A DNA stretch of 30,367 bases from a virus. Location: positions 1 through 30,367 of IMG/VR virus record IMGVR_UViG_3300046007_000126; one strand, 5' to 3'. Shown piece after piece: positions 1,134 through 21,584 of this stretch. The notes beneath the pieces were generated by a model. That model was not told the DNA's origin, did not search any database, and worked only from the letters and a program-made list of their open reading frames with translations. How positions within the stretch are numbered: the first letter of the stretch is position 1; each line of letters starts with the position of its first letter. The position numbers and the translations under genes were made by a program.

Positions 1134-1676
1134 TTACTTCTGAATAAGCCAACTAGGCTCTTGACTAGCCCAATCGTGCTCGGGTTTACAACTAATAACG
1201 TGCAACTTTCTTTGCTGGTGCGCTGCGAATTTATCAGCCACCTCGACCACCAACGGCCAATGCGATGAGTAGTCATCCCCCACTAGGAACCCACCAGGCT
1301 TAACTTTTGGCCACCACTCAGCCAGGGTCCGCCCGTTCTCTTGTCCCGTATGGGCATACCCATCGATGTAGATGAAGTCAAAATATTCATCTGGAAACAG
1401 TTTCCGTGCCACAGAAAAGTCAGCACGAATCAGACTGAACCTGTTGCGATACTTTTCCAACCTCTTTAACGCGGTCAGGTACTCATCATCCGTATGGTTA
1501 CGCTCCCCGCTATACCGATCCACACCGTAGTGAAAGACACCACGGCCATAGTTCAGCACCGCCTCAGAGAACCCACCTTCAGCCACGCCCAGCTCGATGC
1601 TTACTCCGAACATGGGGATCAGGAGAGGAATGTCATACCGCCGCTCAATCTTTTTAAGGGTGCTGTCTAGGTTCAT
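1134..1676 (-). CDS. Class I SAM-dependent methyltransferase (Methyltransf_24-like)
   Basis: A 180-aa protein. I choose the start at 1676 (MNLDSTLKK) rather than the longer open frame to 1763, because this ATG forms an ATGA overlap with the upstream stop and the extra 29 codons are out-of-frame overlap with that gene. The Rossmann-type signature is clear: motif I GVSIELGVAEGGFSEAVL (about 24-41), an acidic residue after strand 2 (GVDRYSG, about 51-57), a motif IV-like FDFIYIDGYAH (99-109) and KPGGFLVGDDY (126-136). This arrangement is typical of small methyltransferases of the Methyltransf_24 type. There is no recognisable target-recognition domain, so the substrate (DNA, protein or small molecule) is unknown. 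Placement between DNA-processing genes makes nucleic acid plausible but unproven. Confidence 0.82.
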   Translation of the reverse strand: MNLDSTLKKIERRYDIPLLIPMFGVSIELGVAEGGFSEAVLNYGRGVFHYGVDRYSGERNHTDDEYLTALKRLEKYRNRFSLIRADFSVARKLFPDEYFDFIYIDGYAHTGQENGRTLAEWWPKVKPGGFLVGDDYSSHWPLVVEVADKFAAHQQRKLHVISCKPEHDWASQEPSWLIQK

Positions 1677-1951
1677 GGTTTCTCCAGTAGGAGCTCGATC
1701 TGTTCTTTGAGGTACACGCCTATGTCTTTGCCCTTGACCGCCACTAGCTGCGCCTCTGGACACTCATAGACCACCTTTGCTGCGTCCTTAATTCCTTTCT
1801 CGTATCCCGTGTCGAAGGCGTTCTTGTTATCCAAGACCATCGCAATACCATCCCGAACCATCCCAGCCGCCTTACGATCTTTAGCGGCCTTTTTGAGTCG
1901 CTTGTAGTGCTCCTCGGGGATGAAGACTGAATAAGCCACTAGCCTTCCCAT
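1673..1951 (-). CDS. Small ribbon-helix-helix-like protein, possible DNA-binding regulator
   Basis: A 92-aa protein. Its first ~45 residues fit a ribbon-helix-helix (CopG/Arc-like) layout: a short strand (LVAYSVFIP), a basic helix (EEHYKRLKKAAKDR) and a second helix (AAGMVRDGIAMVL). The remainder is a separate acidic/hydrophobic segment ending IELLLEKP. It overlaps the upstream gene by 13 bp and the methyltransferase by 4 bp, so it is embedded in the early operon. RHH proteins often autoregulate and bind short inverted half-sites. This is the only recognisable candidate in the window to bind the TGTTACA array at 4972-5052; that link is inference. The fold call is moderate because the family is short and divergent. 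Confidence 0.6.
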   Translation of the reverse strand: MGRLVAYSVFIPEEHYKRLKKAAKDRKAAGMVRDGIAMVLDNKNAFDTGYEKGIKDAAKVVYECPEAQLVAVKGKDIGVYLKEQIELLLEKP

Positions 1952-2358: not shown

Positions 2359-2832
2359 CTACTCATAAACTGGAGTGTTATGCCTGTGCCACTTTTTGTG
2401 ACATGGTTCACACAACCATCTAAGTTCAAGCGGTTTGGTGTAATCATCGTGATGTCCTTCAACGTTGTAAGTTGAACCACAAACAGAACAAACTTCTTTT
2501 CGAAGAATTTTGCCGTCACGTAAAGCGTTGCAAGTAATTACATGTGCCGCATAAGCCATCGGATACTTTTTTTTGTACTTTATGCTTGCTTTTTTTCTGG
2601 CAATTTTCCCAGCTTCAGTTTTTATGTATTCTTTTCTTGCTTTCACCCTATGCGGTTGTGTGCTTCTTTGTTTGTCGTAAGCGCGAATCTTGTCTAAGTT
2701 GTTGTCCCGATGTTTTTTGACTCGATTCTTAACGCATTCAACACACTTATTGAGGTGTCCGTCTTTCATCATTGGGTGTGCATAAAAATCTGACAGCGGT
2801 TTTGTTTGTTTGCACTCTCTGCATATCTTCAT
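2359..2832 (-). CDS. HNH-type zinc-binding endonuclease-like protein
   Basis: A 157-aa highly basic protein. An N-terminal CxxC pair (C4/C7 and C30/C33) forms a probable zinc knuckle. A Lys/Arg-rich helical linker (about 35-90) follows. The C-terminus has a second CxxC pair (C115/C118) with HHDD at 127-130 and C141/C144-H145-x3-H149. This layout matches phage HNH or recombination-endonuclease-VII-like proteins; H127/H128 and H145/H149 are the likely metal or catalytic positions. The gene is visibly more AT-rich than its neighbours, with many A/T homopolymers. It separates the SSB-like gene from the conserved 138-aa gene and may have its own promoter. It is probably a free-standing mobile nuclease gene rather than a core replication gene. 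Nuclease activity itself is inferred. Confidence 0.75.
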   Translation of the reverse strand: MKICRECKQTKPLSDFYAHPMMKDGHLNKCVECVKNRVKKHRDNNLDKIRAYDKQRSTQPHRVKARKEYIKTEAGKIARKKASIKYKKKYPMAYAAHVITCNALRDGKILRKEVCSVCGSTYNVEGHHDDYTKPLELRWLCEPCHKKWHRHNTPVYE

Positions 2833-3868: not shown

Positions 3869-4021
3869 TTATCCTATGTGTTTGTAATACTCATCGACCA
3901 ACGCATTGGCACAGGTGGCTAAGTCTTTGGTGAAGTCTTCGTCGCCCATCCAATCCAGCACATCAGCGTTTGCAGCCAACGCCAACATGAACTTAAGCAG
4001 CAGATCCTGTCTTGTTTCCAT
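3869..4021 (-). CDS. Small acidic protein (50 aa) between ERF and the nuclease
   Basis: A 50-codon minus-strand frame from ATG 4021 to TAA 3869-3871, starting METRQDLLLKFMLALAANAD and ending DEYYKHIG. It overlaps the 3' end of the nuclease gene by 29 bp and stops 2 bp before the ERF start, so it fills an otherwise empty slot in a tightly coupled operon. The purine-rich AGGAGAGC before the ATG is a good ribosome binding site. The protein is mostly helical and acidic, without motifs or a membrane segment. Function is unknown. The position suggests an accessory peptide for the annealing/nuclease pair. Confidence 0.6.
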   Translation of the reverse strand: METRQDLLLKFMLALAANADVLDWMGDEDFTKDLATCANALVDEYYKHIG

Positions 4022-4892
4022 TAATGCTCTCCTGGTAATCCCGCCATTGCTGGCAGTACGTGTTCACCGAACAGAAGTTCTCGCATCGAGTTCTGCTGCC
4101 GGGCCTTACTTCTAACTCCTGCGTCTTTGCATCTAACGCCGCTTCAGCCTCCTCCTTAATTTCATAAACCTTGATAGCCCTGACGCCACCCTTCTTCTTG
4201 ATAGCGTAGGTCGTGGGCCGCTCCCACATTTCATCTGGCGTGCAGTCTGGAAGATCCTCACCCGCCTCGATGGCGAACTCACAGGCCGAGTGCAGCGACA
4301 GGCGATGGGAGATGTACTCCTCCCGCTCCTGGTACGGCCACAGCTTAATAGGGATCTCCTTGACTGGAGCCTGCGGATAGTCTGGGTTCTTAGCTGCCTC
4401 CCGCCGTGACCAGTCTCTAATGATTGCCACGATGCCCAGATCTGTAACGTGCGTATCCTTTTTGACGGACTCCAATAGCCACGCATAGATGTTTAACTGT
4501 TGCTCCCACTCCACCTTCTCGTTCATCACCGCCCAGGCAGAAGTCGTCTTGTAGTCACGGATAGCCACACCGCCGCGCCCGTCTAGGATCTGAAGGTCGA
4601 TGGCCCCAGAGATCCTCCATCCGTCCAGGGTGGCATGGAGCCGCTCTTCTACCTGGTGGTTATCATCCTTGCCATGCTCCAGCACGCCGTGGATCGCTGT
4701 TCCAAAGATCGACCAGACCATGTCAGCAACATCCTGCTCCAGCTCGTCTTCAAACTTCTTGGTCAGCGCTACGATCTTGGGGCTGTTGAGAAGCTGCGTG
4801 GCAGACAGATGCGCCTTTCCCTTGGAGTAGGTGGGGCGCTTGAGTACGTTGACGAACGTCTCAGGAATGTTGTGTTTGTTGGTCAGCTTCAC
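3993..4892 (-). CDS. PD-(D/E)XK superfamily nuclease (RecB/Cas4-like)
   Basis: A 299-aa protein from a GTG start at 4892, chosen because AAGGAGAGAAC lies just upstream; the longer frame to 4979 adds a hydrophobic leader that overlaps the promoter. Core motifs, numbered from the GTG: FGTAIHGVLEHG with H68, ISGAIDLQIL with D99, then IRDYKTTSAW giving D113-x-K115, and EQQLNIYAWLL resembling the QxxxY motif. This is the RecB/Cas4/lambda-exonuclease-like layout. The C-terminus has a TRCENFCSVNTYC cysteine group, reminiscent of the iron-sulphur cysteines of Cas4-like nucleases; I do not see the matching N-terminal cysteine, so a cluster is uncertain. It probably makes ssDNA for ERF. It is the first gene of the leftward early operon. 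Confidence 0.85.
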   Translation of the reverse strand: MKLTNKHNIPETFVNVLKRPTYSKGKAHLSATQLLNSPKIVALTKKFEDELEQDVADMVWSIFGTAIHGVLEHGKDDNHQVEERLHATLDGWRISGAIDLQILDGRGGVAIRDYKTTSAWAVMNEKVEWEQQLNIYAWLLESVKKDTHVTDLGIVAIIRDWSRREAAKNPDYPQAPVKEIPIKLWPYQEREEYISHRLSLHSACEFAIEAGEDLPDCTPDEMWERPTTYAIKKKGGVRAIKVYEIKEEAEAALDAKTQELEVRPGSRTRCENFCSVNTYCQQWRDYQESINGNKTGSAA

Positions 4893-4971: not shown

Positions 4972-5052
4972 TGTAACAAATGTTACAAACTGTAACAATG
5001 TTACGTACTGTAACAGGCTGTTACAGTTGACTGCCCTGTAACAAATGTTACA
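4972..5052. promoter_or_regulatory. Array of eight TGTTACA/TGTAACA half-sites in the divergent regulatory region
   Basis: Alternating heptamers begin at 4972, 4981, 4991, 4999 (one mismatch), 5009, 5019, 5037 and 5046. They form four inverted pairs with spacers of 2, 1, 3 and 2 bp. Most successive half-sites are 8-10 bp apart, roughly one helical turn, so a protein could line one face of the DNA. The pairs at 4972-4987 and 5037-5052 are both TGTAACA-AA-TGTTACA. The array lies between the predicted leftward promoter and RuvC and ends 8 bp before the RuvC ATG, so it can control both directions. Candidates are a repressor/activator operator, or replication iterons. Confidence 0.85.
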
Positions 5053-5060
5053 GTGGAGGC

Positions 5061-5513
5061 ATGGTCTATTTAGGAATTGATCCAGGGTTCACCGGCGCAT
5101 GGGGGTTGATCAACCACCACGGGGACTACATCGGCTGCGGAGACATGATCCACAACGAAAAGTGGATCGACATAAATTCTGTCTATCGAGAAATATCTTT
5201 GATAAGAGAAAACGATGACATGATGATTGTCGTAGAGGCTGTCCATGCCATGCCCAAGCAGGGCGTCTCTAGTTCCTTCAAGTTTGGTATGTCCTACGGC
5301 GCAGCGCTATGCCTGGCTCAAAGGTTTCTGGAACAGTGGGAACTAGTGCAGCCTAGGGTATGGAAGCGCGACATGGGGCTCACAGCCGACAAGACAGACA
5401 GCCTGAACATGGCCCGCCAGAAGTGGCCAGAAGCCCCGCTAAAGCGCGTAAAGGACAACGGAAGGGCAGAGGCTCTGCTGCTCGCTGAATGGCTGCGGCA
5501 GGCTTACTGCTGA
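5061..5513 (+). CDS. ruvC: RuvC-like Holliday junction resolvase
   Basis: A 150-aa protein and the only gene on the plus strand. It begins MVYLGIDPGFTG with D7 in the RuvC 'GIDPG' strand and has VVEAVHAMPKQG with E59 as the second acidic residue. It ends with KDNGRAEALLLAEWLRQ, where E137 and the D132/N133 position correspond to the C-terminal acidic pair. This RNase H-like layout is common in phage RuvC proteins, which resolve branched DNA before packaging. A GGAGG ribosome binding site sits between the last palindrome and the ATG, so a protein on the array would block its transcription or translation. Its 3' end overlaps the end of the giant gene by 10 bp, tail to tail. Confidence 0.88.
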   Translation: MVYLGIDPGFTGAWGLINHHGDYIGCGDMIHNEKWIDINSVYREISLIRENDDMMIVVEAVHAMPKQGVSSSFKFGMSYGAALCLAQRFLEQWELVQPRVWKRDMGLTADKTDSLNMARQKWPEAPLKRVKDNGRAEALLLAEWLRQAYC

Positions 5514-8500
5514 GTCTCTCTGACCCTGTCGTTGAACCGCTTCATCTGAACCATCATCTGGTTCTCAACCGCCTTGACTTGCTCCTTGGGGGCATCCTTC
5601 TCAATCAGCATATCCCGGCGCTTCTTCAGCTTCTGAATGTTGCGCTCGACCTGATTGGCGTAACCATATAGCCTGGCCTCGGGAAACTCCATGAGGTACT
5701 CACGGGTGGGAACCCTGTCTTTGATCCGCCCCTTGATCTCATTCTCATGCTTGTTGAGTTCGATGAGGTTGCTGTAGAAACGATTACGCTCAGCCGAGAT
5801 GCCTGTGGTTTCGCCAATGAACCGGCCAACGAGCGGCACCTTGTAGATCGGCAGCTCTTCGCCAGTGAATTGACTTGTTACAGTCTGCTCGGCTTTGAGA
5901 ATTTCACGACCAACACCGCCAGTCAACTGCCCAATAAGATAGTCAATTTGATCTGGAGTAGGGCTGATGATGCCAGGCTTGTAGTCTGTGCCACCGGTGG
6001 TTGCGTTCAAGTAGTAGGCCAGCTCTTTGCTCAATGCACTAGCGGCTTCCTTAGCGCGGGTGTAGCCTGGCGTGGGAGACAGGGAGCTGAAGTCTTCCTT
6101 GGCAATCGGCTTACCAGTCCAGTCCTTATTCTCAAAGAGCGCCACCAATGGATCGCCAACCGTCGGAGAGAATGTTTGGAACGACCAGCCAGCGTTACCT
6201 AGAGGGTTGAACATATCCAACAGAGAACCAGTCAACGACGCTACACGCTTCGGGGTCTCTTTGAATCCAGAAAGCGCCCACTCGGTTAGGATGCGTCCCG
6301 TGTTGGGAATGACGTTGTACCCAAGCGGCATTGGAACAGTAAGGTATGTTGTGCTACTCACCGGGATAATAAAGTTTCGCTCTTTTACAAACTCTGGCGG
6401 TTCATCTTCATCAAAGCCCATGGCGGCAAGCATCGCAGCCTGGGAAGAACCCATGATGATTCCGCCCCAGAAAATCTTCTTGCCAAGAGGGCTAAGCTCG
6501 TACCGCTTTCCGTTGAACCGGAACATGGTTTGGGCCATGCGCGTTGTACCTTGGACAGCAGCATTAAAGAACGCGTAGAGCGCGCCAGCCTGGCGACCAA
6601 TCTGACCCTTGCGGTTAAAGTTCACCGTGAGATCTTTAGCAAGATTTGCAGCCTGCTCCGTGGTAAATACGTTATTTCCCTGGGCATCTTTTTTGTCTAA
6701 TGCTGCTTTGTATGCAGCCAGACGAATGGCATTCTCCATAGACTGGTTGTAATCCTCCAACCAATTAAAGAGCGGCGCAGCCATCTTGCGTGCCGTTTCC
6801 ATCGGAACTTTGAGCGTACCGTTTGCAGTGAATACTTTGCCAAGAGGAGTCTTAGTCCAGGACGATGGATCTAGGATTGCTTGTAACGCATCAGCACGTT
6901 CTTGCATCCGACTAAACTGATCGCGGAATCCTGTCTGGCCACCCTCTTTCTGGAACTCTTCCCAGAGTTGCGACCATGTGCCCTTAAGAGGAGGTTTGCC
7001 AGCACGACGATTACGTTCCTCAGCATAGATGCCGCGCAACGCCGCTATGGTATCGCCCAAAATCTTCATCTTGTCACCAGCCAAAGGCGTGGTGTTGATC
7101 TGAATCATCGCGCCTTGAACGTCGCGCAAGAAGTTGATTGCACCAAAGATTGGGTTGTACTGAGTGTTGATCTTTGCGAAGTATTGGGTGAACTGCTGCA
7201 TCGCCCCCATGACTCGGCCAAGATTGTCGGCATCAAGATTTTTTAACGCCATGGCCATCCGCTTGGCGCGTTCATCCTGCGCGTTGAAGATGACGTATTT
7301 CTCTTTGCCGTTGATACGAACAGGGATCACGTACTCGGAGTTAAGTAGCGTCTTGTTCGGACGTTCAACTACCCTGTTGGTAGCCGCATCCACACTTCGT
7401 ATTACTGGTTCTTTAATTATGTTGTCGATGTCCGCAGGGTTAAGTCCAAGCGCATTTAGCTCATCCCTAACCTTTTGAGGATCTTTCATGACCTCTGGGT
7501 CATATGCTAACCAGAACCCTGGGTTGGGATTGCTGACCACGAGACCATAAAGCGCTTTGCTAACCCTGAGCTTTTCTCCACGGACAATTGCACGCTCGCG
7601 TTGCTCAGCAAGGTTCGCAAGAATATCTACAACCTTTCGTGACGAACCAACTGCTGCGCGACTGAACGGACCTTTGACAGCAATACCAGAACCAACACCA
7701 GTACCAATCTTGGTGATGTCGTATTCGCCTTCTTCGCGCTTCAATGGAACATAGTTCTGTAGCGCCTTGTTCCACGAATCAACTGTTTGTTGTGACTCTT
7801 GCCCCGTCTTAACGAGGATTTGTTGCGTATCCTTAACAATCTTATCTACCCGCTTAGCAAGGTCTTCAAAGACTTTCTTTTGCTGAGGAGTGAGACCTGC
7901 GAGGTAAGCCTGGGCGTCTTTCGTTAAGATCCCAGAACCACCATCAGCCATATTTGGATCGCGCTTTGCATTGAACTTATTGCGGGCCTCGGCATGACGA
8001 TTGTGAAGATACTCTTCAAACTGTTCAATGTTAAGACCTTTTGCACCAAGCTCTTTAATCAGCGGCTCAAGGTCACCTTTTAAAAAGTCTTGAACCTGTT
8101 TAGATGTTCGCCCATGGAATAGCGTTTCTTGAAGATACGGATTCCAACGGTCAGCAATTTGCTTACCGGCTTTGCGAATGTTTTCTACCACACGTTTCGT
8201 ATCAATTTGCTTGTCTTGCAACGTGTAGATGACATTGTCCATCTTGCTTTCAATCGGAGCGTCCCATGATCCTTTTGGTATGGGCTGGCCAAATACGTTG
8301 GTCTTGATGTTCTCTAATGGAACAGGGCGAGCACCCGTCTCAGTCACATAGTCAGTCAATGACTGAATACCCATTGGCCTGGGCTCATCACGCATGATCT
8401 GGTCAAATACTTTGTGAACTGCGTATTTGTTGTTAAACCCAAAGACGTTCTTCAGTCCGTCAAAGTATTTCTTGATTGCTTTGACAAACCGATCCCAAGC

Positions 8501-11500
8501 CGTCCCTAGCTTAGACTTCATGAGCGTTTCAGCATTGATCGCCCAATACTCGGACGGGTTTAGATACTGATAGAACTCATAGGACGGCATAGCCTGGACC
8601 GCTGCCGCAAATGTTGCTTCACTAGGCGCATCGAGGAATCCTAAGACCTTGCTAAAGTATTCTTGCGATGGTTGATCTTTGTTGGCCTTGACTGCTTTCT
8701 TCAGAGCATCCTGCCACGCATCAATCACAACTTTGCGCTGCGCTTCAGTCATCATCTGTTCAAGCGAGTGCATGATCTCATGGCGAACTGAAGAAGGATC
8801 TTCAACTCCGCTTGTACCGTTCCACAAGGTAACGATGCGATCAAACGGATTAAAGTTACCCGATGAACGACCAGGCTTCTTGGGAGTCCGTACAGACAAA
8901 CGCAGGCCATTGAGTAGCCACGGCGTCTTGTTATATGCATCCTGAATAGATGCCAAGACATCAGCGCTCAAGTCGCCCTTGTCGTATGCCTCTAGTGCGC
9001 GACGCAAGAAGTTCTCCGGGGAGGTGCTAGGAGCATAGCCCGCTTCAATTTCAGACTTCAGCTCCTTCGACAACTCATCAACGAGGGTCAGACGCCGCTG
9101 TAAATCTACTGTAGCGCCACCTTCAATAACCCCCTGGACCAGACGTTCACGACGAGCACGAAGCGCAGCGTACTGGGCGATGATCTCGTCACGGGTGAGG
9201 GACGGGATCATTGTGGATTCTTGTTCCGTTATCTGCGGCACCGTGTCGATGTTGTACAGGAAGTTCTCTTTCGACCCATACTCAACGCCGCGGGCAAGGA
9301 TCATGTTGCCAATCTGCAATATTGCATCAGCTTTGACTACGGGCAGCGTAGTGCGCCGGTCATAGAAGTAAGCATGACGGGTGGGATCAAATCCTAGCTG
9401 AACATATCGAGGATCGTTAATAGCCTTTTGTGCCATTTCAAATGCGGTTGACGGGGACACATTGACATACTCACCCTCCATCGTCTGAAGCGCATCTTTA
9501 GCAGACCCGGCAGCAATCTCTAATGCTTTGGCCTGGTTACCCAGAGCAAACGTCACATTCTTTGCAAGCGCTACGCTACGGTATCCAATAGCCAGCCCAG
9601 GCTTTGGCGATGTAACTTTGGGGCGACCTTCATGGATCGACACAACAAAGGTCTTGTGATTGTTCCACGCGGGAATGTCGAGACGCAGGCCCACCTTCGT
9701 ACCATCGGGGATAGATACGTTAGCCTTGGGTTTCTTATCCGACGACAGTGCATTGACTACCTGTTCCTCTGTTGCGGGCGTCAATGGCTCTGTGTACAAA
9801 GGAATAGGACGGAACCGATTGACCGCTTGGTCGTATTCTTCCTTGGTTACTTTGCCTTCTTGCAAAAGCTCTGCCAGTGCAGCCAGCTCAGGCGAACGGC
9901 CAGGAGGCAGCTTCTTCTTGGCTTTGGGCAGGTTTTCATCGAGGTCTTTGATGGTCTTTGCATCTTCGCCAAAAAGGTCAGACTGAGGCTCTTGTACTTT
10001 GATGGTTACTTGCTCTTCCATCAACTTACGCATATCAGACCAACTAAAGTATTGATAACCACGTTGGCTCGGTACTTTGGGTATCCGTAAAAAATCAAAG
10101 AGCTTAGATGTGTCTGGTGTTACTACACCCGGACGATCATCTGGAAAAAGGAATTTTGTTCTCCTACTAAACATCTGAGAGAACCGTTCGTACTGACCAT
10201 TTGGTTTGATCCAAATGCCGTCTTCGACCGATGGTCCAACTTTCTTAAGTGCATCCCTATCTCTCGATGCAACCAACAGACGACCGCCGCTTTGTGAAAT
10301 AGCTAACCTAAATAGTGTTCGTGTGACTTGTTCAGGCGTTTTGTTTTTAAACGCATCATTGTCAATAGTTGTGATACCAGTTACGCTAAAATCGTTACCA
10401 AGAGCAATGACGACCATAGACTCAGGATTTTCGTCTACGCGTTTTGCTATCTCAAATGGGTGAAAAGCCTCGGACGCTGTCAAAGGATTTTTTTGCAGAA
10501 GTTCTTTCTGCCCCATATCCTTAGAATAAGTCTGTACGTATCCTTCAGGAGCAATTACTGAATACTTATTTGTGTCTATAACGATATGGCCTTTGTACGC
10601 TAGCTTTGTAAAAGCATTGGTAAAAGATTTAGTCATAGATTGATCGGCTTTGCTAACCTCCACGTTGCCGCTTGGGTGGTTGTGCAACATCCACACGCCA
10701 GTAGCGCCAGCTTGCACAGCCGCCTCTTGAACCTTTTTCATGTACTCGATGCTGCTGTCGCCAACAATTGCAACCGCTGCCGCTGGCAAACGACTTGTTA
10801 CACCGAGTTGAGAAACGACTTCATTTTTGTCATTGACAAAGAACATACGAAAGGTCTCAAACCGGGGATGCCGGTAGACCTGAGACAGAACTGCTAGATC
10901 ATCATGCCCAGTTACTTTTTGTCCAACGAGGCTGACCCGCTGTCGTCTTGCGTAGTCTGTGGAGAGGGCCAGAGCGAGAGGGTTGTCGGTGGACTGTAAA
11001 GCATCCACGGTGGACACGGCCTCCCGTCTCGCAGTTTTTCCGGCTTGATTGTCTTCGTTTGGCGGTAACTGGCTATTAGCAAAGAGGGAGAGTTGTTCTG
11101 CATTTTCTTTCTTCCTTTTGGTAACTTTCTCCGGGGTGACTTGCTCCAGCCCTTCAACACCAAACAGATCTTTTTGAGCACCAGGGGGCGTCGTTCTTTC
11201 TGGTGGCGTAGGCGGAGTAAGACTGAAGAAGTCGCGCTCTAGTTCCGCTCTTCTTCGTTCTTCTGGGCTTGGCTCTCTAATTTGAGGCGTTTCAGCTCTT
11301 CCAATATCCGCTTCTGAGATTGTAGGGGCAACTCCTTCAGCCTCTCCAGCGCGTTCTTCTGCTGCGATTTCTGCGAGTCGGGCGTTGATTTGTCCAAGGG
11401 TCAGCTCCTTTGATAAGTTCTCAATCTTCTCGTCTATCACCCGCAATGCCATCTTGTCGTCTTCGGTCAAGAAGTCATTGTTCTCAATGCGCTCGATGAT

Positions 11501-13636
11501 GTAGTCAACAGCATTACGAACCTTTGAAAATTCATTGGGATCGTAAACATCCTCTGCACGCACGAATACTTTGAGGTCGTCAGGCAGGAAGTCGTTGAGC
11601 TGCTCGTCCTCAATCATTTGCTGCAATGGCTTGCCGCGACCTGTCTTGCTAACAAAACTATTTCGCCGAAGTGTTGCTCCTCGTCCCAGGCCAAAGTCAA
11701 CACGCTTCAGATCTTCATCGAGCGTTAGCATCCCATCTGGCAATGGGCGATCAGCGCCTTCAATCTTTGCAGGCTGAGCTGCTCTACCAGACAACAGATC
11801 AGCAAGGTTATTAAATCCCTTGGTGCCCTTGATGCGGTTGTACTGAATGTTTAGCGCTCTCTGCTTGTCGCTAATGTCTTTGCGTGCAGTCAGCTCTTCC
11901 TCGGACAGGATTGGCTCTTTGCCAAACATCTTCTCTTCAAAGACTGTCTTTGGACCTTTCGCTGGTAACTCTGGTACAGCCTCGACCTCGGGAGCAGTGA
12001 CCTCTGGGGGAAGTGTTGGCGGTGTCGTAAGGGCAATCTTCTCAGCCTCAAAAGTGTTGAGCTTAGCCGCTGCTACGTCAACGGCTTCTTGGCCAACCTT
12101 GTTCTTTTTAAACGCTGTCTCGGCCCGTTTCAGTTCCTGCCGGGCTTTGTTAATGTCCGTTTGTATCTCTTTTGCAGGACGACCAGCAGGTTTAATAACA
12201 GGTGGCGTAGGGGGCGTGATCGTACCAGCAGGGGGAGTAGGAGGCGTGACTGTCCCAGAAGGAGGAGTCGGTGGTGTTGGTGGCGTAACGCTTACGCCCG
12301 TAGGAGTTACGGGAGGTGTAACAGCAGGAGGCACTGTAACATTTGTTACAGTAGGCGCGACACCAGCAATCTGGGCGGCTATGTTATTGGCTTCATCGAA
12401 AGTGCCAAATGTTCCACCATCCTGCGTCTGTCCTGTTGCTGTGTCTATCATCAAGACTTGGAACTGACCGTTCGGAGCCGGGATGATCTGCGTTTCTGTC
12501 TGATCTGCGGGGTTTGTATATCCACCCAGGATTCCTGCCGACGGTGTAACAGGTGTTACAGGAGGCTGTCCTGCGGGTGGCGTAGTGGGCGCAGCGGCAG
12601 TTGGCGCAGCAGATGGGGTAGCAGCGGGCGGCGTAGTAGTAGGAGCAGCGGCAGGGGTGGTTGGTGTCTGAGGCCCCTTATAAGCATCGATAGCTTCTTT
12701 CGTTGTTTGAACAGTAGATCCAAGTCCACCGCCCACAATCGCCCCTTCTAGCCCCGCTAGAGCAGCCTCTTCTAAATCAAATCCTCTTTGAGTCCCAGCG
12801 GTTTCTGCTGAATAGGTACCAAACTCTTCTGCAAACTCTGTGCCTGCTTGAACCCCAGTCTCTTTGGCAATTCTTCCGGGAGCCGTTTTTCCTGTTACCC
12901 CAGCACCAGGCAACAATCTGCCAGTAGCAAATTTTTCAAATAATGTTTCAAACGCAGCAGCGCCAGCAGCGGCAGACACATCACCAACCGTGGCTTCGGC
13001 TAAAGTCTTCTTGTCATTTTCAACACGTGACTTCAGTATCTCGTTGGTTCGTGCGGCAAAGTATGCCGGGGCCATTGAAACCGCAGCCGCCATGTCCGGG
13101 ATGGAAGTTATTACTCGTTCAGCAATAAACGGGACGGCGTTTAAAGGATTTTCTGTAAGGTCTTTAAGCTCTGTGCTTGGCGCGTAACCAACGTCTTTCT
13201 CGTAGTTCAACGCCTTGTCCGCGAACTTCTTGCCTACCGTGTCAATTGGAAGTTCAAAGACCTGGTCTTTTGGAAGGCCAGTAAGGTTTGACATCAATTG
13301 AGCTAACGTGTCTGGAACTTCTAGTGCAGCACCAGCCAACCCAGCAGTTCTGGCCACAGCACCCATCAATGGGTTTTGCGTCTTTACTTCGCCCGGTGCA
13401 ATTGCCTGCGCTGGTGCAGACTCAGGCAGTATTTCTGGCCTTGCCGCACTTAAGAATTTATCTAAGAAGCCCTGCTCTTCTTCTTTTTTAAATGGGTCTG
13501 CGATCTGCCACTCGTTATTGACTAGATATGCGAACTGTCCAGTCTCTGGATTCCGAGCGGTTTGTGACGGAGGAACCCACTGATTATTAACGAGGAACAG
13601 CACCTCACCAGTTTGAGGGTTGACTGCTCTCTGCAT
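5504..13636 (-). CDS. Giant polyvalent phage protein with JAMM/RadC-like and HEXXH motifs (2710 aa)
   Basis: One uninterrupted frame with an AAGGA site before the ATG. Two N-terminal repeats, NPQTGEVLFLVNNQW (6-20) and NPETGQFAYLVNNEW (28-42), are followed by an Ala/Gly-rich region (about 90-320) of the kind seen in membrane-active virion proteins. Next is a Pro/Thr-rich linker (about 325-490) and coiled-coil/charged stretches. A RadC/JAB-type domain lies around 915-1040 with the JAMM motif HNHPSG...SKAD (H985, H987, S995, D998). A 'HAYFYDR' polyvalent-associated segment is near 1410, and HEIMH is at 1619-1623. The C-terminal third includes a 'VNFNRKGQIGRQAGALYAFFNAAVQG' region before a hydrophobic segment near 2390, similar to large-polyvalent-protein domain LPD38. 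Such proteins are thought to be packaged and injected with DNA. The enzymatic roles are inferred. Confidence 0.85.
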   Translation of the reverse strand: MQRAVNPQTGEVLFLVNNQWVPPSQTARNPETGQFAYLVNNEWQIADPFKKEEEQGFLDKFLSAARPEILPESAPAQAIAPGEVKTQNPLMGAVARTAGLAGAALEVPDTLAQLMSNLTGLPKDQVFELPIDTVGKKFADKALNYEKDVGYAPSTELKDLTENPLNAVPFIAERVITSIPDMAAAVSMAPAYFAARTNEILKSRVENDKKTLAEATVGDVSAAAGAAAFETLFEKFATGRLLPGAGVTGKTAPGRIAKETGVQAGTEFAEEFGTYSAETAGTQRGFDLEEAALAGLEGAIVGGGLGSTVQTTKEAIDAYKGPQTPTTPAAAPTTTPPAATPSAAPTAAAPTTPPAGQPPVTPVTPSAGILGGYTNPADQTETQIIPAPNGQFQVLMIDTATGQTQDGGTFGTFDEANNIAAQIAGVAPTVTNVTVPPAVTPPVTPTGVSVTPPTPPTPPSGTVTPPTPPAGTITPPTPPVIKPAGRPAKEIQTDINKARQELKRAETAFKKNKVGQEAVDVAAAKLNTFEAEKIALTTPPTLPPEVTAPEVEAVPELPAKGPKTVFEEKMFGKEPILSEEELTARKDISDKQRALNIQYNRIKGTKGFNNLADLLSGRAAQPAKIEGADRPLPDGMLTLDEDLKRVDFGLGRGATLRRNSFVSKTGRGKPLQQMIEDEQLNDFLPDDLKVFVRAEDVYDPNEFSKVRNAVDYIIERIENNDFLTEDDKMALRVIDEKIENLSKELTLGQINARLAEIAAEERAGEAEGVAPTISEADIGRAETPQIREPSPEERRRAELERDFFSLTPPTPPERTTPPGAQKDLFGVEGLEQVTPEKVTKRKKENAEQLSLFANSQLPPNEDNQAGKTARREAVSTVDALQSTDNPLALALSTDYARRQRVSLVGQKVTGHDDLAVLSQVYRHPRFETFRMFFVNDKNEVVSQLGVTSRLPAAAVAIVGDSSIEYMKKVQEAAVQAGATGVWMLHNHPSGNVEVSKADQSMTKSFTNAFTKLAYKGHIVIDTNKYSVIAPEGYVQTYSKDMGQKELLQKNPLTASEAFHPFEIAKRVDENPESMVVIALGNDFSVTGITTIDNDAFKNKTPEQVTRTLFRLAISQSGGRLLVASRDRDALKKVGPSVEDGIWIKPNGQYERFSQMFSRRTKFLFPDDRPGVVTPDTSKLFDFLRIPKVPSQRGYQYFSWSDMRKLMEEQVTIKVQEPQSDLFGEDAKTIKDLDENLPKAKKKLPPGRSPELAALAELLQEGKVTKEEYDQAVNRFRPIPLYTEPLTPATEEQVVNALSSDKKPKANVSIPDGTKVGLRLDIPAWNNHKTFVVSIHEGRPKVTSPKPGLAIGYRSVALAKNVTFALGNQAKALEIAAGSAKDALQTMEGEYVNVSPSTAFEMAQKAINDPRYVQLGFDPTRHAYFYDRRTTLPVVKADAILQIGNMILARGVEYGSKENFLYNIDTVPQITEQESTMIPSLTRDEIIAQYAALRARRERLVQGVIEGGATVDLQRRLTLVDELSKELKSEIEAGYAPSTSPENFLRRALEAYDKGDLSADVLASIQDAYNKTPWLLNGLRLSVRTPKKPGRSSGNFNPFDRIVTLWNGTSGVEDPSSVRHEIMHSLEQMMTEAQRKVVIDAWQDALKKAVKANKDQPSQEYFSKVLGFLDAPSEATFAAAVQAMPSYEFYQYLNPSEYWAINAETLMKSKLGTAWDRFVKAIKKYFDGLKNVFGFNNKYAVHKVFDQIMRDEPRPMGIQSLTDYVTETGARPVPLENIKTNVFGQPIPKGSWDAPIESKMDNVIYTLQDKQIDTKRVVENIRKAGKQIADRWNPYLQETLFHGRTSKQVQDFLKGDLEPLIKELGAKGLNIEQFEEYLHNRHAEARNKFNAKRDPNMADGGSGILTKDAQAYLAGLTPQQKKVFEDLAKRVDKIVKDTQQILVKTGQESQQTVDSWNKALQNYVPLKREEGEYDITKIGTGVGSGIAVKGPFSRAAVGSSRKVVDILANLAEQRERAIVRGEKLRVSKALYGLVVSNPNPGFWLAYDPEVMKDPQKVRDELNALGLNPADIDNIIKEPVIRSVDAATNRVVERPNKTLLNSEYVIPVRINGKEKYVIFNAQDERAKRMAMALKNLDADNLGRVMGAMQQFTQYFAKINTQYNPIFGAINFLRDVQGAMIQINTTPLAGDKMKILGDTIAALRGIYAEERNRRAGKPPLKGTWSQLWEEFQKEGGQTGFRDQFSRMQERADALQAILDPSSWTKTPLGKVFTANGTLKVPMETARKMAAPLFNWLEDYNQSMENAIRLAAYKAALDKKDAQGNNVFTTEQAANLAKDLTVNFNRKGQIGRQAGALYAFFNAAVQGTTRMAQTMFRFNGKRYELSPLGKKIFWGGIIMGSSQAAMLAAMGFDEDEPPEFVKERNFIIPVSSTTYLTVPMPLGYNVIPNTGRILTEWALSGFKETPKRVASLTGSLLDMFNPLGNAGWSFQTFSPTVGDPLVALFENKDWTGKPIAKEDFSSLSPTPGYTRAKEAASALSKELAYYLNATTGGTDYKPGIISPTPDQIDYLIGQLTGGVGREILKAEQTVTSQFTGEELPIYKVPLVGRFIGETTGISAERNRFYSNLIELNKHENEIKGRIKDRVPTREYLMEFPEARLYGYANQVERNIQKLKKRRDMLIEKDAPKEQVKAVENQMMVQMKRFNDRVRETQQ
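12335..12350. promoter_or_regulatory. Dispersed palindrome, same sequence class as the promoter array
   Basis: TGTAACA-TT-TGTTACA. With one flanking base on each side (12334-12351) it is the exact reverse complement of the promoter-region site CTGTAACAAATGTTACAG at 5036-5053. It lies in the Pro/Thr-rich linker of the giant protein (about residues 429-435, TVTNVTV). A nearby half-site TGTAACA is at 12317-12323. Confidence 0.6.
12545..12560. promoter_or_regulatory. Dispersed palindrome, second copy in the giant gene
   Basis: TGTAACA-GG-TGTTACA, with perfect 7-bp arms and the same 2-bp spacing as the promoter-region sites. It lies in the same linker of the giant protein (about residues 359-365, PVTPVTP), 194 bp upstream in reading direction of the copy at 12335. 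Confidence 0.55.
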
Positions 13637-18876: not shown

Positions 18877-19353
18877 TCAAATCGTGTACCACTGGGTTGT
18901 AGTGGTTGCAAACAATTGAACGACCGACCCAGCGGTCAAAGAGTAAGAATTGTTGGCACCCAAAGCATTAATTTCCGCTCCAGTCGCTGGATATATTTTT
19001 AATGTATCTGCCGCATCAGAATTTCGCACTAAAATCGTTACGCCTGGCACTGCTGTCGGTAACCTTACGCCGTCATTAGTTGCTGTTACTACAGTCACAT
19101 TGTTGATGCTAGATGTTAACTCCACCGCTGCGTTCTGCGTAGTTCCTGTTGCAGTAACGCTTGAGCTCACCCCACCTACAAAAAATCCCCCGATAAACTC
19201 ATCTGCTCGATAAGAGTTTGCCTGTTGAGGGGTAAGCGAATCTAACTGGTTGAAGTACAACCGTAAAGCATTGATTAACTGATCCATCTGCTGACGGTCA
19301 TACTGCTCCCGTGGCAGAGGAAGTGCTGGTGCGCGGAATCCTATAAGGGCCAT
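18877..19353 (-). CDS. Small virion/tail-type protein, beta-rich (158 aa)
   Basis: A 158-aa protein. A helical N-terminus (about 15-50: REQYDRQQMDQLINALRLYFNQLD) leads into a Ser/Thr/Val-rich beta region ending KIYPATGAEINALG...SVVQLFATTTTQWYTI. The final block, with 'TLKIYPATGAxIN' and a closing 'WYTI', is frequent in small phage head-tail or tail-tube proteins. Its ATG shares one base with the stop of the stabilisation gene (TAATG), so the two are coupled. The 68-bp gap to the next gene contains that gene's ribosome binding site and no clear terminator. Confidence 0.7.
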   Translation of the reverse strand: MALIGFRAPALPLPREQYDRQQMDQLINALRLYFNQLDSLTPQQANSYRADEFIGGFFVGGVSSSVTATGTTQNAAVELTSSINNVTVVTATNDGVRLPTAVPGVTILVRNSDAADTLKIYPATGAEINALGANNSYSLTAGSVVQLFATTTTQWYTI

Positions 19354-21584
19354 TACCGTTTGCCGTCTGGCTGCGCGTCCAGCCTAGGAGCACCAAGTTG
19401 CCATTGCACCCCAAGCCCGTCTGAGCTGATCCGCATAGCCATCTGCCGTCCTCTGGTACGGATGAATACCTGTTCCGTGTACTGGTCTACCGTAGTCTGA
19501 ATGACCGGCTTCTCGTTTAGAGCGTTGTTGGTAAATGTTGAACCAGGGAAGTTACGGGACCGAACGCCCATAGTGACTTCGGGATCGTTGGCTGTAGAGC
19601 CACTAAAGTTAATGTCTGGGATCACCCGCTTGGTCAGCATCAGCTTGTCACCGTCCTCGATGTCAAAGTCAGATGACTGGATAAATGCTTCTAGCGGCAG
19701 CGTGTTGTCATTCACCCCTACCTCATGGGTATAGAGGATGCCTGGATTCTGGTTCTGATCCGTAGATACTGCCGTGGGGAAGTCTCTGGAGGACACATCG
19801 AGCCAGGCCGTGCGGGTCAAGTTACCGTAATACCAGATCCGATCCAGGTGGTTATAGATTACATACCGGTCAACCCAGTTGGAATTGGCGCTGCAATAGA
19901 ACCACCAGACTTCGTTGTATCCCTCGTTCGTACCGCAGATTACCTGGTCGGCCTGATTGAAGTTGATGTCCTTGAAGACATACTCTCGCAGCGTGCAAGG
20001 CAGCGTCTGTACCCGGCCATCATAGGCATAGAACTTGTCCAGACCCATCCAGTACGTCACGTTGTTCACTGAGATACATGACCGTGGAGACATGATCGAG
20101 ATGTTGTCGGCCAGCTCCTGGAGACCAAACACCTCAATAGTACCTAGGAACTGAAAGCTGTACAGGTGTGTATCTGTGAAGACCACAATCTCCTGCTTCG
20201 TTGGCAGCGCCCGGACAATCCTCGATCCACGGGACACCCGAATAAATCCAGCGGAGTTCGTCAGCAACGGTGTCCAAACGTTTGGCTGATCCTGCGTAGC
20301 CCAACGAATCAGGAGAGGGTCGAAATCACCGACAGACCCGGCGTATGGCTGGCACCCAAACGCTAGAAGGTGTTTATCGTTTTGTGAGACCAGAATTTGA
20401 TAGGCTGAATCAGGAACGTCTGCCGGGGCCACGCCATCTAATGTCAGCCCAGAAAGAAGAACCGCCCGAGTGTTAAGTGACGCCTGTGGGTTTGTAGCCG
20501 TGTCTCGCACCCAGTAGTAGATTGGTCCGCCGGTAGAGATACCAGAACCAGTCGTAATGGCCCGGATGTTCATCACCAGGTCATTGTCAAAGTTATCAAA
20601 AAACCAATCCCGCTGCGGAAGGTTTACGGGAACAGGACTAGCAAGCCCCCAACCAGTCGGAGACGATACAAGTTGAGCGCTGTGTGTTCCACTCTGTGTT
20701 CCCGTAGTATTGATGACTGCACCAGCAGATCCGTTAGGCAGAATCAAAGCAAGATTACATGTGTTACCAGAGGCTCCAACCACGTAATAAGACACGCCAG
20801 CAGAAAGCCCTGTAGGCAACGCACCGGTCGTAGACAAAATGATGACTGTGTTGTCCGCTGGGGTATAAGCAGCAAATGTCAAAACAGCCGGGGATGCAAT
20901 AGTTACTGTAAACGTACCCATCGTAGAAAGCCCGGTTGTTCCACCGAAACCACCAGTCCCCCACCCGTAACCCGCCGTCTGGAGAGGAAAGCCTGGATGG
21001 ATCTGGCATCCAACAAAGATCGCTGTACCACCCCCGTTACTCACGGTTGATGTGGCCGCAGTCGATACGGTAATCGTAAAGTTATTGTTATCTGTAACAG
21101 ATGTTACAGTGTGCTCCGCGTTCAATATGGCACTGGGTATACCGCCTACGTCAGTCGCACCGGCAATCGTGATGTAGTCACCAACTAGGCATCCATGCGC
21201 CGTGATGTTGATATTGACTGTGGTTGAACCATTAGTCGTATCAATACAGTTATCTGTAGTGGGAGTCTTAAATGTGTACTCTTCATCGGGCGAGGCAAGT
21301 GGACTGCGGATAGGCGTGATGTCGTAGAACAACCCACCAACCTCGATGTAGACCTTCTGATCCGTACCAACCGCCAGAAAGTTATCTGAATACGAAGTAA
21401 CCCAGTTCCAGAGCTGCCGACAGGTTCCAATGAACCGCTCAGTCGTAGCTTCTACCCAGCCGCCAATCTTCTGCGGGAATCCAGAGTAAAACCGGACTTT
21501 GTCGCACTCGTAATAGCCGCCCTCGTTGGCGTAGTTCGTGGTGTCACGATTGATACCAGGACGCAGGACGATCTTTTTAAGCAT
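19353..21584 (-). CDS. P22 gp10-like packaged-DNA stabilisation protein
   Basis: A 743-aa protein. It opens with RPGINRDTTNYANEGGYYECDKVRFYSGFPQKIGGW (described in parts: a 'PGINRDTTNY' start, 'CDKVRF' and 'GFPQKIGGW'), the signature of phage stabilisation proteins that seal the portal channel and form the lower tail hub. The remaining chain is a series of propeller-like repeats with conserved Trp/Asp/Gly (NWVTSYSDNFLAVGT, ALPTKQEIVVFTDTHLYSF, ITYWMGLDKFYAYDG-like). Residues about 112-170 and 200-290 carry Thr/Ser/Gly-rich Ig-like or adhesin-like inserts (ITAHGCLVGDYITIAG; SAGVSYYVVGASGN), which makes it longer than P22 gp10 (472 aa). It is the strongest structural anchor for a podovirus-type tail here. 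Confidence 0.85.
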   Translation of the reverse strand: MLKKIVLRPGINRDTTNYANEGGYYECDKVRFYSGFPQKIGGWVEATTERFIGTCRQLWNWVTSYSDNFLAVGTDQKVYIEVGGLFYDITPIRSPLASPDEEYTFKTPTTDNCIDTTNGSTTVNINITAHGCLVGDYITIAGATDVGGIPSAILNAEHTVTSVTDNNNFTITVSTAATSTVSNGGGTAIFVGCQIHPGFPLQTAGYGWGTGGFGGTTGLSTMGTFTVTIASPAVLTFAAYTPADNTVIILSTTGALPTGLSAGVSYYVVGASGNTCNLALILPNGSAGAVINTTGTQSGTHSAQLVSSPTGWGLASPVPVNLPQRDWFFDNFDNDLVMNIRAITTGSGISTGGPIYYWVRDTATNPQASLNTRAVLLSGLTLDGVAPADVPDSAYQILVSQNDKHLLAFGCQPYAGSVGDFDPLLIRWATQDQPNVWTPLLTNSAGFIRVSRGSRIVRALPTKQEIVVFTDTHLYSFQFLGTIEVFGLQELADNISIMSPRSCISVNNVTYWMGLDKFYAYDGRVQTLPCTLREYVFKDINFNQADQVICGTNEGYNEVWWFYCSANSNWVDRYVIYNHLDRIWYYGNLTRTAWLDVSSRDFPTAVSTDQNQNPGILYTHEVGVNDNTLPLEAFIQSSDFDIEDGDKLMLTKRVIPDINFSGSTANDPEVTMGVRSRNFPGSTFTNNALNEKPVIQTTVDQYTEQVFIRTRGRQMAMRISSDGLGVQWQLGAPRLDAQPDGKR
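21093..21108. promoter_or_regulatory. Dispersed palindrome in the stabilisation gene
   Basis: TGTAACA-GA-TGTTACA with perfect 7-bp arms and 2-bp spacing; with flanks it reads CTGTAACAGATGTTACAG. It lies within the insert-like region of the stabilisation protein (about residues 160-165, TVTSVTD), some 16 kb from the promoter array. Confidence 0.55.

What the first reader, a model, noticed from the sequence alone, without database searches (positions are those of the whole stretch)
4972..5052. Helically phased TGTTACA/TGTAACA array between divergent early genes
Eight alternating 7-bp half-sites fall in 81 bp, forming four inverted pairs, most about one helical turn apart. They lie between a predicted UP-element promoter for the leftward early operon and the only rightward gene (RuvC). 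A protein covering this array would switch both directions. Arrays of short inverted half-sites are typical of ribbon-helix-helix or HTH operators, and also of replication iterons.
Basis: partly seen in the sequence, partly recalled or inferred. Interest (0 to 1): 0.8.

Follow-up and report, generated by a model that had tools for sequence, protein, structure and literature searches.

The report
Scattered docking sites for phage ParB-like protein
The short mirror-image DNA repeats in this bacterial virus look like docking sites for one of the virus's own DNA-binding proteins, a relative of the bacterial chromosome-partition protein ParB; the same sites recur at other promoters and inside genes in related viruses, and protein and site appear to change together.

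Summary
The array is real: four inverted pairs (7 exact TGTWACA heptamers plus one TGTTACG) in 81 bp between a PD-(D/E)XK nuclease gene and a RuvC gene. It belongs to a set of palindromes, consensus (T)GTAACA-N1-3-TGTTAC(A), that in related phages stands upstream of three operons: nuclease/RuvC, PAPS-reductase/ParB-like, and LexA-like/terminase. Copies also lie inside late genes; three of them in this window survive a synonymous-codon control (0 of 3000 permutations). The first-stage candidate, the 92-aa RHH-like protein, is not supported. My own first candidate, a 78-aa LexA-DBD protein whose gene follows one array, was also dropped as binder. The best-supported binder is a phage-encoded ParB-like protein, just outside the window. 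Genomes that lost its HTH lost the sites. Across 55 distinct proteins one recognition-helix residue predicts one half-site base: Lys/Arg/His go with G in 27 of 28, Ser/Ala/Gly/Gln with non-G in 27 of 27. That residue aligns with the ParB/Noc specificity residue R173, and the base sits where parS has the base linked to it. What binding does is inferred: most likely KorB-like repression and autoregulation. No binding was measured.

The parts
4972..4987 (.). palindrome 1, TGTAACA-AA-TGTTACA
4991..5005 (.). palindrome 2, TGTAACA-A-TGTTACG (one mismatch)
5009..5025 (.). palindrome 3, TGTAACA-GGC-TGTTACA
5037..5052 (.). palindrome 4, identical to palindrome 1; ends 8 bp before the RuvC start codon
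5027..5054 (+). sigma-70-like promoter match TTGACT-16-TACAGT (extended -10), overlapped by palindrome 4
   Evidence: 2 matches in the region, 0.5 expected in shuffles; weak evidence
5061..5513 (+). RuvC-type Holliday junction resolvase, 150 aa
   Evidence: PHROG 1770 E 2.6e-23
3993..4892 (-). PD-(D/E)XK exonuclease; probable GTG start at 4892 after GGAGAG (the listed TTG start at 4979 lies in the array)
12335..12350 (.). intragenic palindrome TGTAACA-TT-TGTTACA in the 2710-aa ORF
12545..12560 (.). intragenic palindrome TGTAACA-GG-TGTTACA in the 2710-aa ORF
21093..21108 (.). intragenic palindrome TGTAACA-GA-TGTTACA in the 743-aa ORF 19353-21584
5504..13636 (-). 2710-aa ORF that carries two of the intragenic sites
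1673..1951 (-).

Best explanation
The array is a cluster of four recognition sites for a phage-encoded ParB-like DNA-binding protein (ParB_N-type domain, helix-turn-helix, long coiled coil; about 275 aa). Its gene lies outside the window, in the PAPS-reductase/ParB-like operon, and was read on a contig identical to the window where they overlap. A dimer is expected to grip one palindrome, each HTH reading one (T)GTAACA half-site. Sites stand at the nuclease/RuvC junction, at the promoter of the protein's own operon and upstream of the LexA-like/terminase operon, with further single sites inside late genes. Supported by co-variation in sequence: which protein reads the sites and which residue reads which base. 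Inferred: bound protein represses the divergent nuclease and RuvC promoters and its own operon, in the manner of plasmid KorB, and intragenic sites serve as extra loading points or roadblocks. Not shown: binding itself, direction of regulation, timing, any CTP requirement.
For: Recognition code: 55 distinct ParB-like proteins with a site in hand; HTH residue 132 Lys/Arg/His -> half-site base 2 is G in 27 of 28; Ser/Ala/Gly/Gln -> not G in 27 of 27 (Fisher 7.6e-15). Of the alignment columns scanned, residue 132 predicts the base best (0.95; next 0.84). It aligns with the Arg of Thermus Spo0J, the place of Caulobacter ParB R173, whose change to Gln goes with base 1 going from G (parS) to A (NBS) (PMC7383237, passages). 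Profile: G019 and G020 keep the LexA-like gene but have lost the ParB_N+HTH part and have no such site. HTH motif MT[VI] versus a site near the gene: 22 of 30 against 1 of 16, p 2.3e-5. A shared odd HTH (SHSTVNRIK) goes with a shared odd site TGGAAC..GTTCCA in L284 and G033. Distant sites in one genome share a dialect: 136 of 296 pairs, permuted mean 47, maximum 74. The model resembles ParB, Noc and KorB structures.
Against: No binding was measured. Phylogeny is not fully removed: 11 changes of residue class on the best tree, but only 3 independent pairs on well-supported branches (all 3 agree in 198 of 200 pairings; sign test p 0.25). The 75% cut-off for 'mostly G' was set after the first 25 genomes had been seen; by simple majority the two classes separate fully. 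8 of 30 genomes with the canonical HTH show no site in the stretch held. One genome with a variant HTH (TKVTV, L312) still has TAACA sites. Spacers of 1-3 bp within one array are unusual for ParB-type sites (recalled). The GERR motif of CTP-binding ParBs is GFHR here. No ParA was found. The LexA-like protein also fits by location and by a published precedent.
Confidence: 0.74

Rival explanations
1. The sites are operators of the phage's 78-aa LexA-DBD-only protein, which would control its own gene and the other operons; it works like gp6 of phage GIL01.
For: In a sample chosen by LexA-like protein only, TAACA-N1-3-TGTTA lies within 300 bp upstream in 20 of 34 de-replicated loci, 207-fold denser than elsewhere in them, best of all 1024 five-base arms. 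The fold is LexA DBD. GIL01 gp6, a truncated LexA, binds GaCACAn-nTGTGaC (PMC6182141, sections 16-18), a similar plan.
Against: Helix GRGN versus a site upstream: 17 of 27 against 3 of 7, p 0.41. G019/G020 keep LexA-like proteins (G020 with a helix like that of site-bearing relatives) but have no site. G025, G036 and G038 have odd LexA helices and still TAACA sites. It does not account for the residue-base code in the ParB-like HTH.
Confidence: 0.14
2. Partition or genome-organisation sites: the ParB-like protein uses them as dispersed parS-like loading sites to compact, segregate or package phage DNA rather than to regulate genes. (Same binder as the best explanation, other purpose; the two overlap.)
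For: Same pairing evidence. Sites lie inside genes beyond what codons give, often in the front part of the giant late gene. ParB/Noc-like fold.
Against: No ParA (PF13614) in 15 contigs, control family found in 14 of 14 genomes. Dense arrays sit at promoters, right before start codons. GERR motif replaced by GFHR.
Confidence: 0.25
3. Sites for a host regulator of the CRP/FNR or LexA type that the phage exploits.
For: TGTAA-N6-TTACA resembles CRP-type sites (recalled), and the HTH profile weakly matches CRP (E about 0.3).
Against: Site dialects change in step with a residue of a phage protein; spacers of 1-3 bp do not suit a rigid CRP dimer (recalled).
Confidence: 0.03
4. Replication iterons or a repressor array for the 92-aa RHH-like protein.
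For: Clustered short repeats; RHH-like gene in the same leftward gene run as the nuclease.
Against: Sites at several promoters and within genes; RHH protein present without sites and not detected in one genome with a site.
Confidence: 0.03

Closest known systems
KorB of plasmid RK2 and its OB operators (PMC11790492, passages)
   Same: ParB-type protein used as a gene regulator, 16-bp operator, promoter-near and distant sites; the model matches the KorB-KorA-DNA complex 8qa9 (TM 0.53-0.54 by target).
   Different: Phage-borne; sequence similarity only at profile level; GFHR instead of GERR; sites also inside late genes; several dialects; no KorA identified (the LexA-like protein could play that part, untested).
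ParB-parS and Noc-NBS (PMC7383237, passages)
   Same: HTH position that sets the base at half-site position 1, here mapped to half-site base 2 of (T)GTAACA; palindromic 7-2-7 layout as in parS (parS letters recalled).
   Different: TGTAACA instead of TGTTTCA half-sites (recalled), spacer 1-3 bp, no ParA found, no evidence of partition.
Stoperators of mycobacteriophage L5 clade (PMC6550527, passages)
   Same: Many sites across one phage genome, mostly not at promoters, with genome-specific dialects that follow the binding protein.
   Different: Those are 13-bp sites with one predominant orientation, bound by a lysogeny repressor; here the sites are palindromes, and no relative in bacterial genomes was found (LexA-like query only).
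GIL01 gp6 (PMC6182141, sections 16-18)
   Same: Truncated LexA regulator in a phage with a palindrome ACA-nn-TGT.
   Different: In our phages the LexA-like protein does not co-vary with the sites.

Membership tests
ParB superfamily (ParB_N + HTH) | ParB_N-type domain followed by HTH | tested here: met
   PHROG 1033 'ParB-like partition protein' E 1.9e-16; profile to ParB/Spo0J chains E 6.9e-5 to 4e-4; Foldseek ParB, Noc, KorB. Pfam ParB_N itself is below its cut-off (8 of 19 members match at 0.01).
ParB superfamily (ParB_N + HTH) | GERR-type CTP-binding motif | tested here: not met
   GFHR in the aligned members that keep the domain; GERR in the ParB chain aligned to it.
ParABS partition system | ParA ATPase | tested here: not met
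   PF13614 in 0 of 15 contigs; rings in 14 of 14 controls. Contigs may be fragments.
ParB-parS recognition | specificity residue at the R173 position reads half-site base 1 | tested here: met
   co-variation in 54 of 55 proteins plus alignment to Spo0J; not biochemical.
KorB-like global regulator | operators at several promoters including its own | tested here: met
KorB-like global regulator | repression of transcription, CTP-dependent sliding | not testable with these tools
   needs protein and reporter assays
LexA-DBD operator (gp6 type) | recognition helix tracks the operator | tested here: not met
Replication iterons | clustered direct repeats at an origin beside a Rep gene | tested here: not met
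   inverted pairs at several promoters and inside genes; no Rep gene seen next to the array

The most novel reading that the evidence does not exclude
A large family of apparently virulent phages carries a KorB-like global network: one ParB-like protein, lacking the usual GERR motif, loads at palindromes spread over promoters and the bodies of late genes, each phage keeping its own site dialect through a single recognition residue; it could be both a genome-wide gene switch and an organiser of phage DNA.
Probability: 0.4. Interest if true: 0.85.

Novelty: new variant of a known kind. Interest (0 to 1): 0.72.

Why it matters
It pairs an orphan array with a candidate protein and a near one-to-one residue-to-base rule across 55 natural proteins, which makes a phage regulatory network testable in two simple experiments. 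It also extends the ParB/Noc specificity story to uncultivated phages, and suggests that ParB-type proteins without a ParA can act as genome-wide regulators there. Sites hidden inside late genes under codon constraint are a useful warning that coding sequence can carry operators.

Tried and rejected
2) RHH-like 92-aa protein: not discriminating. 3) A dispersed mobile repeat shared by unrelated phages: I read that way because loci with the same flanks held no window proteins; they proved to be other parts of the same phage group. 5) Changed recognition helix of LexA (GEG clade) with a new palindrome: nothing convincing. 6) Looking for LexA-like relatives in bacterial genomes: 38 stretches matched a pattern, none encodes a relative. 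7) Isolated relatives by terminase/capsid (Planktothrix phage Pag-Yong1, DSL-LC04, Pelagibacter phages HTVC023P and HTVC027P): no TAACA palindrome in the stretches fetched; in the phage collection the ParB-like protein has only 4 partial matches, so no isolate is at hand. 8) Paper searches for phage ParB-like regulators with dispersed sites; none describing this system was seen in the listings. One search, a search for the two heptamers, gave unrelated papers. 9) An early genome-length guess (58 kb, in my notes) was wrong; adding coordinates of overlapping contigs gives about 64 kb (inference).

Full report
WHAT IS THERE. The window is a 30,367-base virus record. At 4972-5052 it holds eight heptamers in four inverted pairs with spacers of 2, 1, 3 and 2 bp. 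TGTTACA occurs 18 times in the window against 3.98 expected. The array separates a leftward PD-(D/E)XK exonuclease gene from the rightward RuvC gene (PHROG Holliday junction resolvase). Palindrome 4 ends 8 bp before the RuvC start codon and overlaps the one rightward promoter-like match near that gene. The nuclease most likely starts at the GTG at 4892, behind GGAGAG, not at the TTG at 4979 in the ORF list. Palindrome centres are not helically phased with one another. In a close relative (contig 3300044858_000687, 94-97% DNA identity over most of the matched stretches and 90% over one) the array is a single 16-mer: window stretches 4972-4987 and 5037-5052 both map onto that one copy, so copy number changes, presumably by recombination between the identical outer palindromes.

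THREE PROMOTERS. A contig identical to the window in the overlap (3300046011_003628, G001) continues beyond the left end. There palindromes stand just upstream of an operon for a PAPS-reductase-like and a ParB-like protein. A third array stands upstream of a 78-aa LexA-DBD protein that precedes the large terminase gene. One contig (G007) carries the last two arrays and is 100% identical to G001 over 9,485 bases. In relatives with roughly 45-95% protein identity, palindromes of the same type recur at these promoters: LexA-like in G005, G008, G009, G012, G013 and G018; PAPS or ParB-like in G005, G008, G009 and G013; nuclease/RuvC or nuclease in G005, G008, G009 and G018.

NOT CHANCE. In 80 loci chosen only by similarity to the LexA-like protein, 79 had at least 150 bp upstream and fell into 34 clusters. 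TAACA-N1-3-TGTTA lies within 300 bp upstream in 20 of 34, at 3.9 per kb against 0.019 per kb in the rest of the same loci; of all 1024 five-base arms it is the best, the next reaching 4 of 34. The next base outwards is symmetric in 32 of 39 sites. In 20 contigs the pattern occurs 70 times and its backward control never; G000, G004 and G007 belong to one phage group, so these are not 20 independent genomes. In a second sample chosen by the ParB-like protein, 18 of 46 clusters have a site within 1400 bp upstream, 0.339 per kb against 0.030, and in 20 long contigs the pattern occurs 84 times against 1 for the control. A free search for any short palindrome ranks TAACA or GTAAC first in 12 of the 13 contigs chosen for having sites (all but G012), and does not list them in G019, G020, G033, G035, G041 and G028; in G027 GTAAC ranks second.

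SITES INSIDE GENES. The three copies at 12335, 12545 and 21093 read V-T-x-V-T in the late genes. Permuting synonymous codons within each gene gives the exact 16-mer 0.0027 times on average, and 0 of 3000 permutations reach 3; for the core, 0.104 on average and 0 of 3000. Other genomes: 0 of 400 permutations reach the observed number in G013 and G010, 5 of 400 in G018, 16 of 400 in G004, and G005 (220), G008 (70) and G009 (58) are not significant; G012 has none in its ORFs. In seven more genomes 0 of 200 reach it in six, and G031 is not significant (18 of 200). Gene calls here are simple long ORFs. Sites in the giant late gene are seen in this window, G013, G024, G030, G031, G034, G036 and G038, in G033 in another dialect, and not in G005, G008 or G009.

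WHICH PROTEIN. Three phage proteins were weighed. The RHH-like protein is in 24 of 27 contigs whether or not they have sites. The LexA-like protein sits beside one array and has a precedent in GIL01 gp6, but its helix does not track the sites (17 of 27 against 3 of 7, p 0.41), and G019 and G020 keep it without any such site. In those two genomes the ParB-like protein is reduced to its coiled-coil part. HTHs of the form MT[VI] have a site near the gene in 22 of 30 cases, other HTHs in 1 of 16 (in 4 of the 16 the HTH could not be read). G033 and L284 share a different HTH and a different palindrome, TGGAAC..GTTCCA. Some contigs lacking the LexA-like gene (G027, G033) are fragments without that region, so they do not bear on the question.

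THE RESIDUE-BASE CODE. The HTH resembles that of CRP weakly and aligns with ParB. This suggested looking at the residue after the conserved Ser (His132 here) and the second base of (T)GTAACA. In 25 genomes: Lys/Arg/His with mainly G in 17 of 17, the other residues with mainly G in 2 of 8. After two further scans made for this purpose: 233 loci, 88 distinct proteins, 55 with at least one site and a readable HTH (33 dropped for lack of either). Lys/Arg/His: 27 of 28 with at least 75% G (the exception, L264, has 67%); Ser/Ala/Gly/Gln: 0 of 27. By majority: Lys 22 G, His 4 G, Arg 2 G; Ser 9 T, 3 A, 1 C, 2 mixed; Ala 2 C, 1 A, 2 mixed; Gln 1 C; Gly 5 mixed, 1 T, which fits the expectation that glycine makes no contact. 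The column scan puts this residue first by a clear margin. On a tree built without the HTH columns there are 11 changes of residue class and 12 of base class; only 3 independent pairs rest on well-supported branches, all in agreement in 198 of 200 pairings. In ParB and Noc the aligned residue (R173 or Q173) goes with G or A at position 1 of the half-site (PMC7383237, passages read); that this is the same place as base 2 of (T)GTAACA rests on my recall of the parS letters.

HOW IT PROBABLY WORKS. Inferred: a dimer held by the coiled coil binds each palindrome through flexible HTHs, which could explain spacers of 1 to 3 bp. Four palindromes at the nuclease/RuvC junction would give high occupancy and shut or tune both directions; the sites at the protein's own operon would give feedback; sites inside late genes could block or slow elongation or load more protein. 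KorB of RK2 is the nearest functional parallel (PMC11790492, passages). The GERR motif is replaced by GFHR and no ParA was found, so neither CTP-driven sliding nor partition may be assumed.

LIMITS. All evidence is sequence evidence. Records are fragments, hosts are unknown, and no isolate with this protein over most of its length was found in the phage collection. The ParB-like gene is not in the window itself. Of the papers cited, PMC6182141 was read in abstract and sections 16-18 and passages; PMC7383237, PMC11790492 and PMC6550527 as passages; PMC9599517, PMC12753301 and PMC12373910 were only searched for terms.

Noticed in passing
L167 (1697), L169 (5938), L183 (575), L195 (4485): An exact match to the canonical bacterial parS (letters recalled) stands about 60 bp upstream of the LexA-like gene in one clade, where other phages carry TAACA palindromes. 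The phage may recruit the host's ParB.
   Followed up: partly
L137:165-401 and relatives: A 74-78-aa LexA DNA-binding-domain-only protein just before the large terminase gene; 534 of the first 600 pattern stretches in the viral collection encode a relative, none confirmed in bacterial genomes. Function open.
   Followed up: partly
G019:26069-26353, G020:32095-32370: The ParB-like protein survives as a coiled-coil fragment after loss of the DNA-binding part, so the coiled coil may have a use of its own.
   Followed up: no
window 2359-2832: HNH-like gene absent from the close relative L005, as expected of a homing endonuclease.
   Followed up: no
window 4972-5052 versus L136 7415-7430: The array shrinks from four palindromes to one between close relatives.
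   Followed up: partly
G014:38277-39086: The ParB-like frame holds one in-frame TAG; pseudogene, sequencing error or recoding not examined.
   Followed up: no
G035 21262, 27002, 48637: A different palindrome dialect, TGTTC(A)..(T)GAACA, near the giant gene, near the nuclease gene and before the LexA-like gene, alongside an unusual ParB-like HTH SISTVQRLR.
   Followed up: partly
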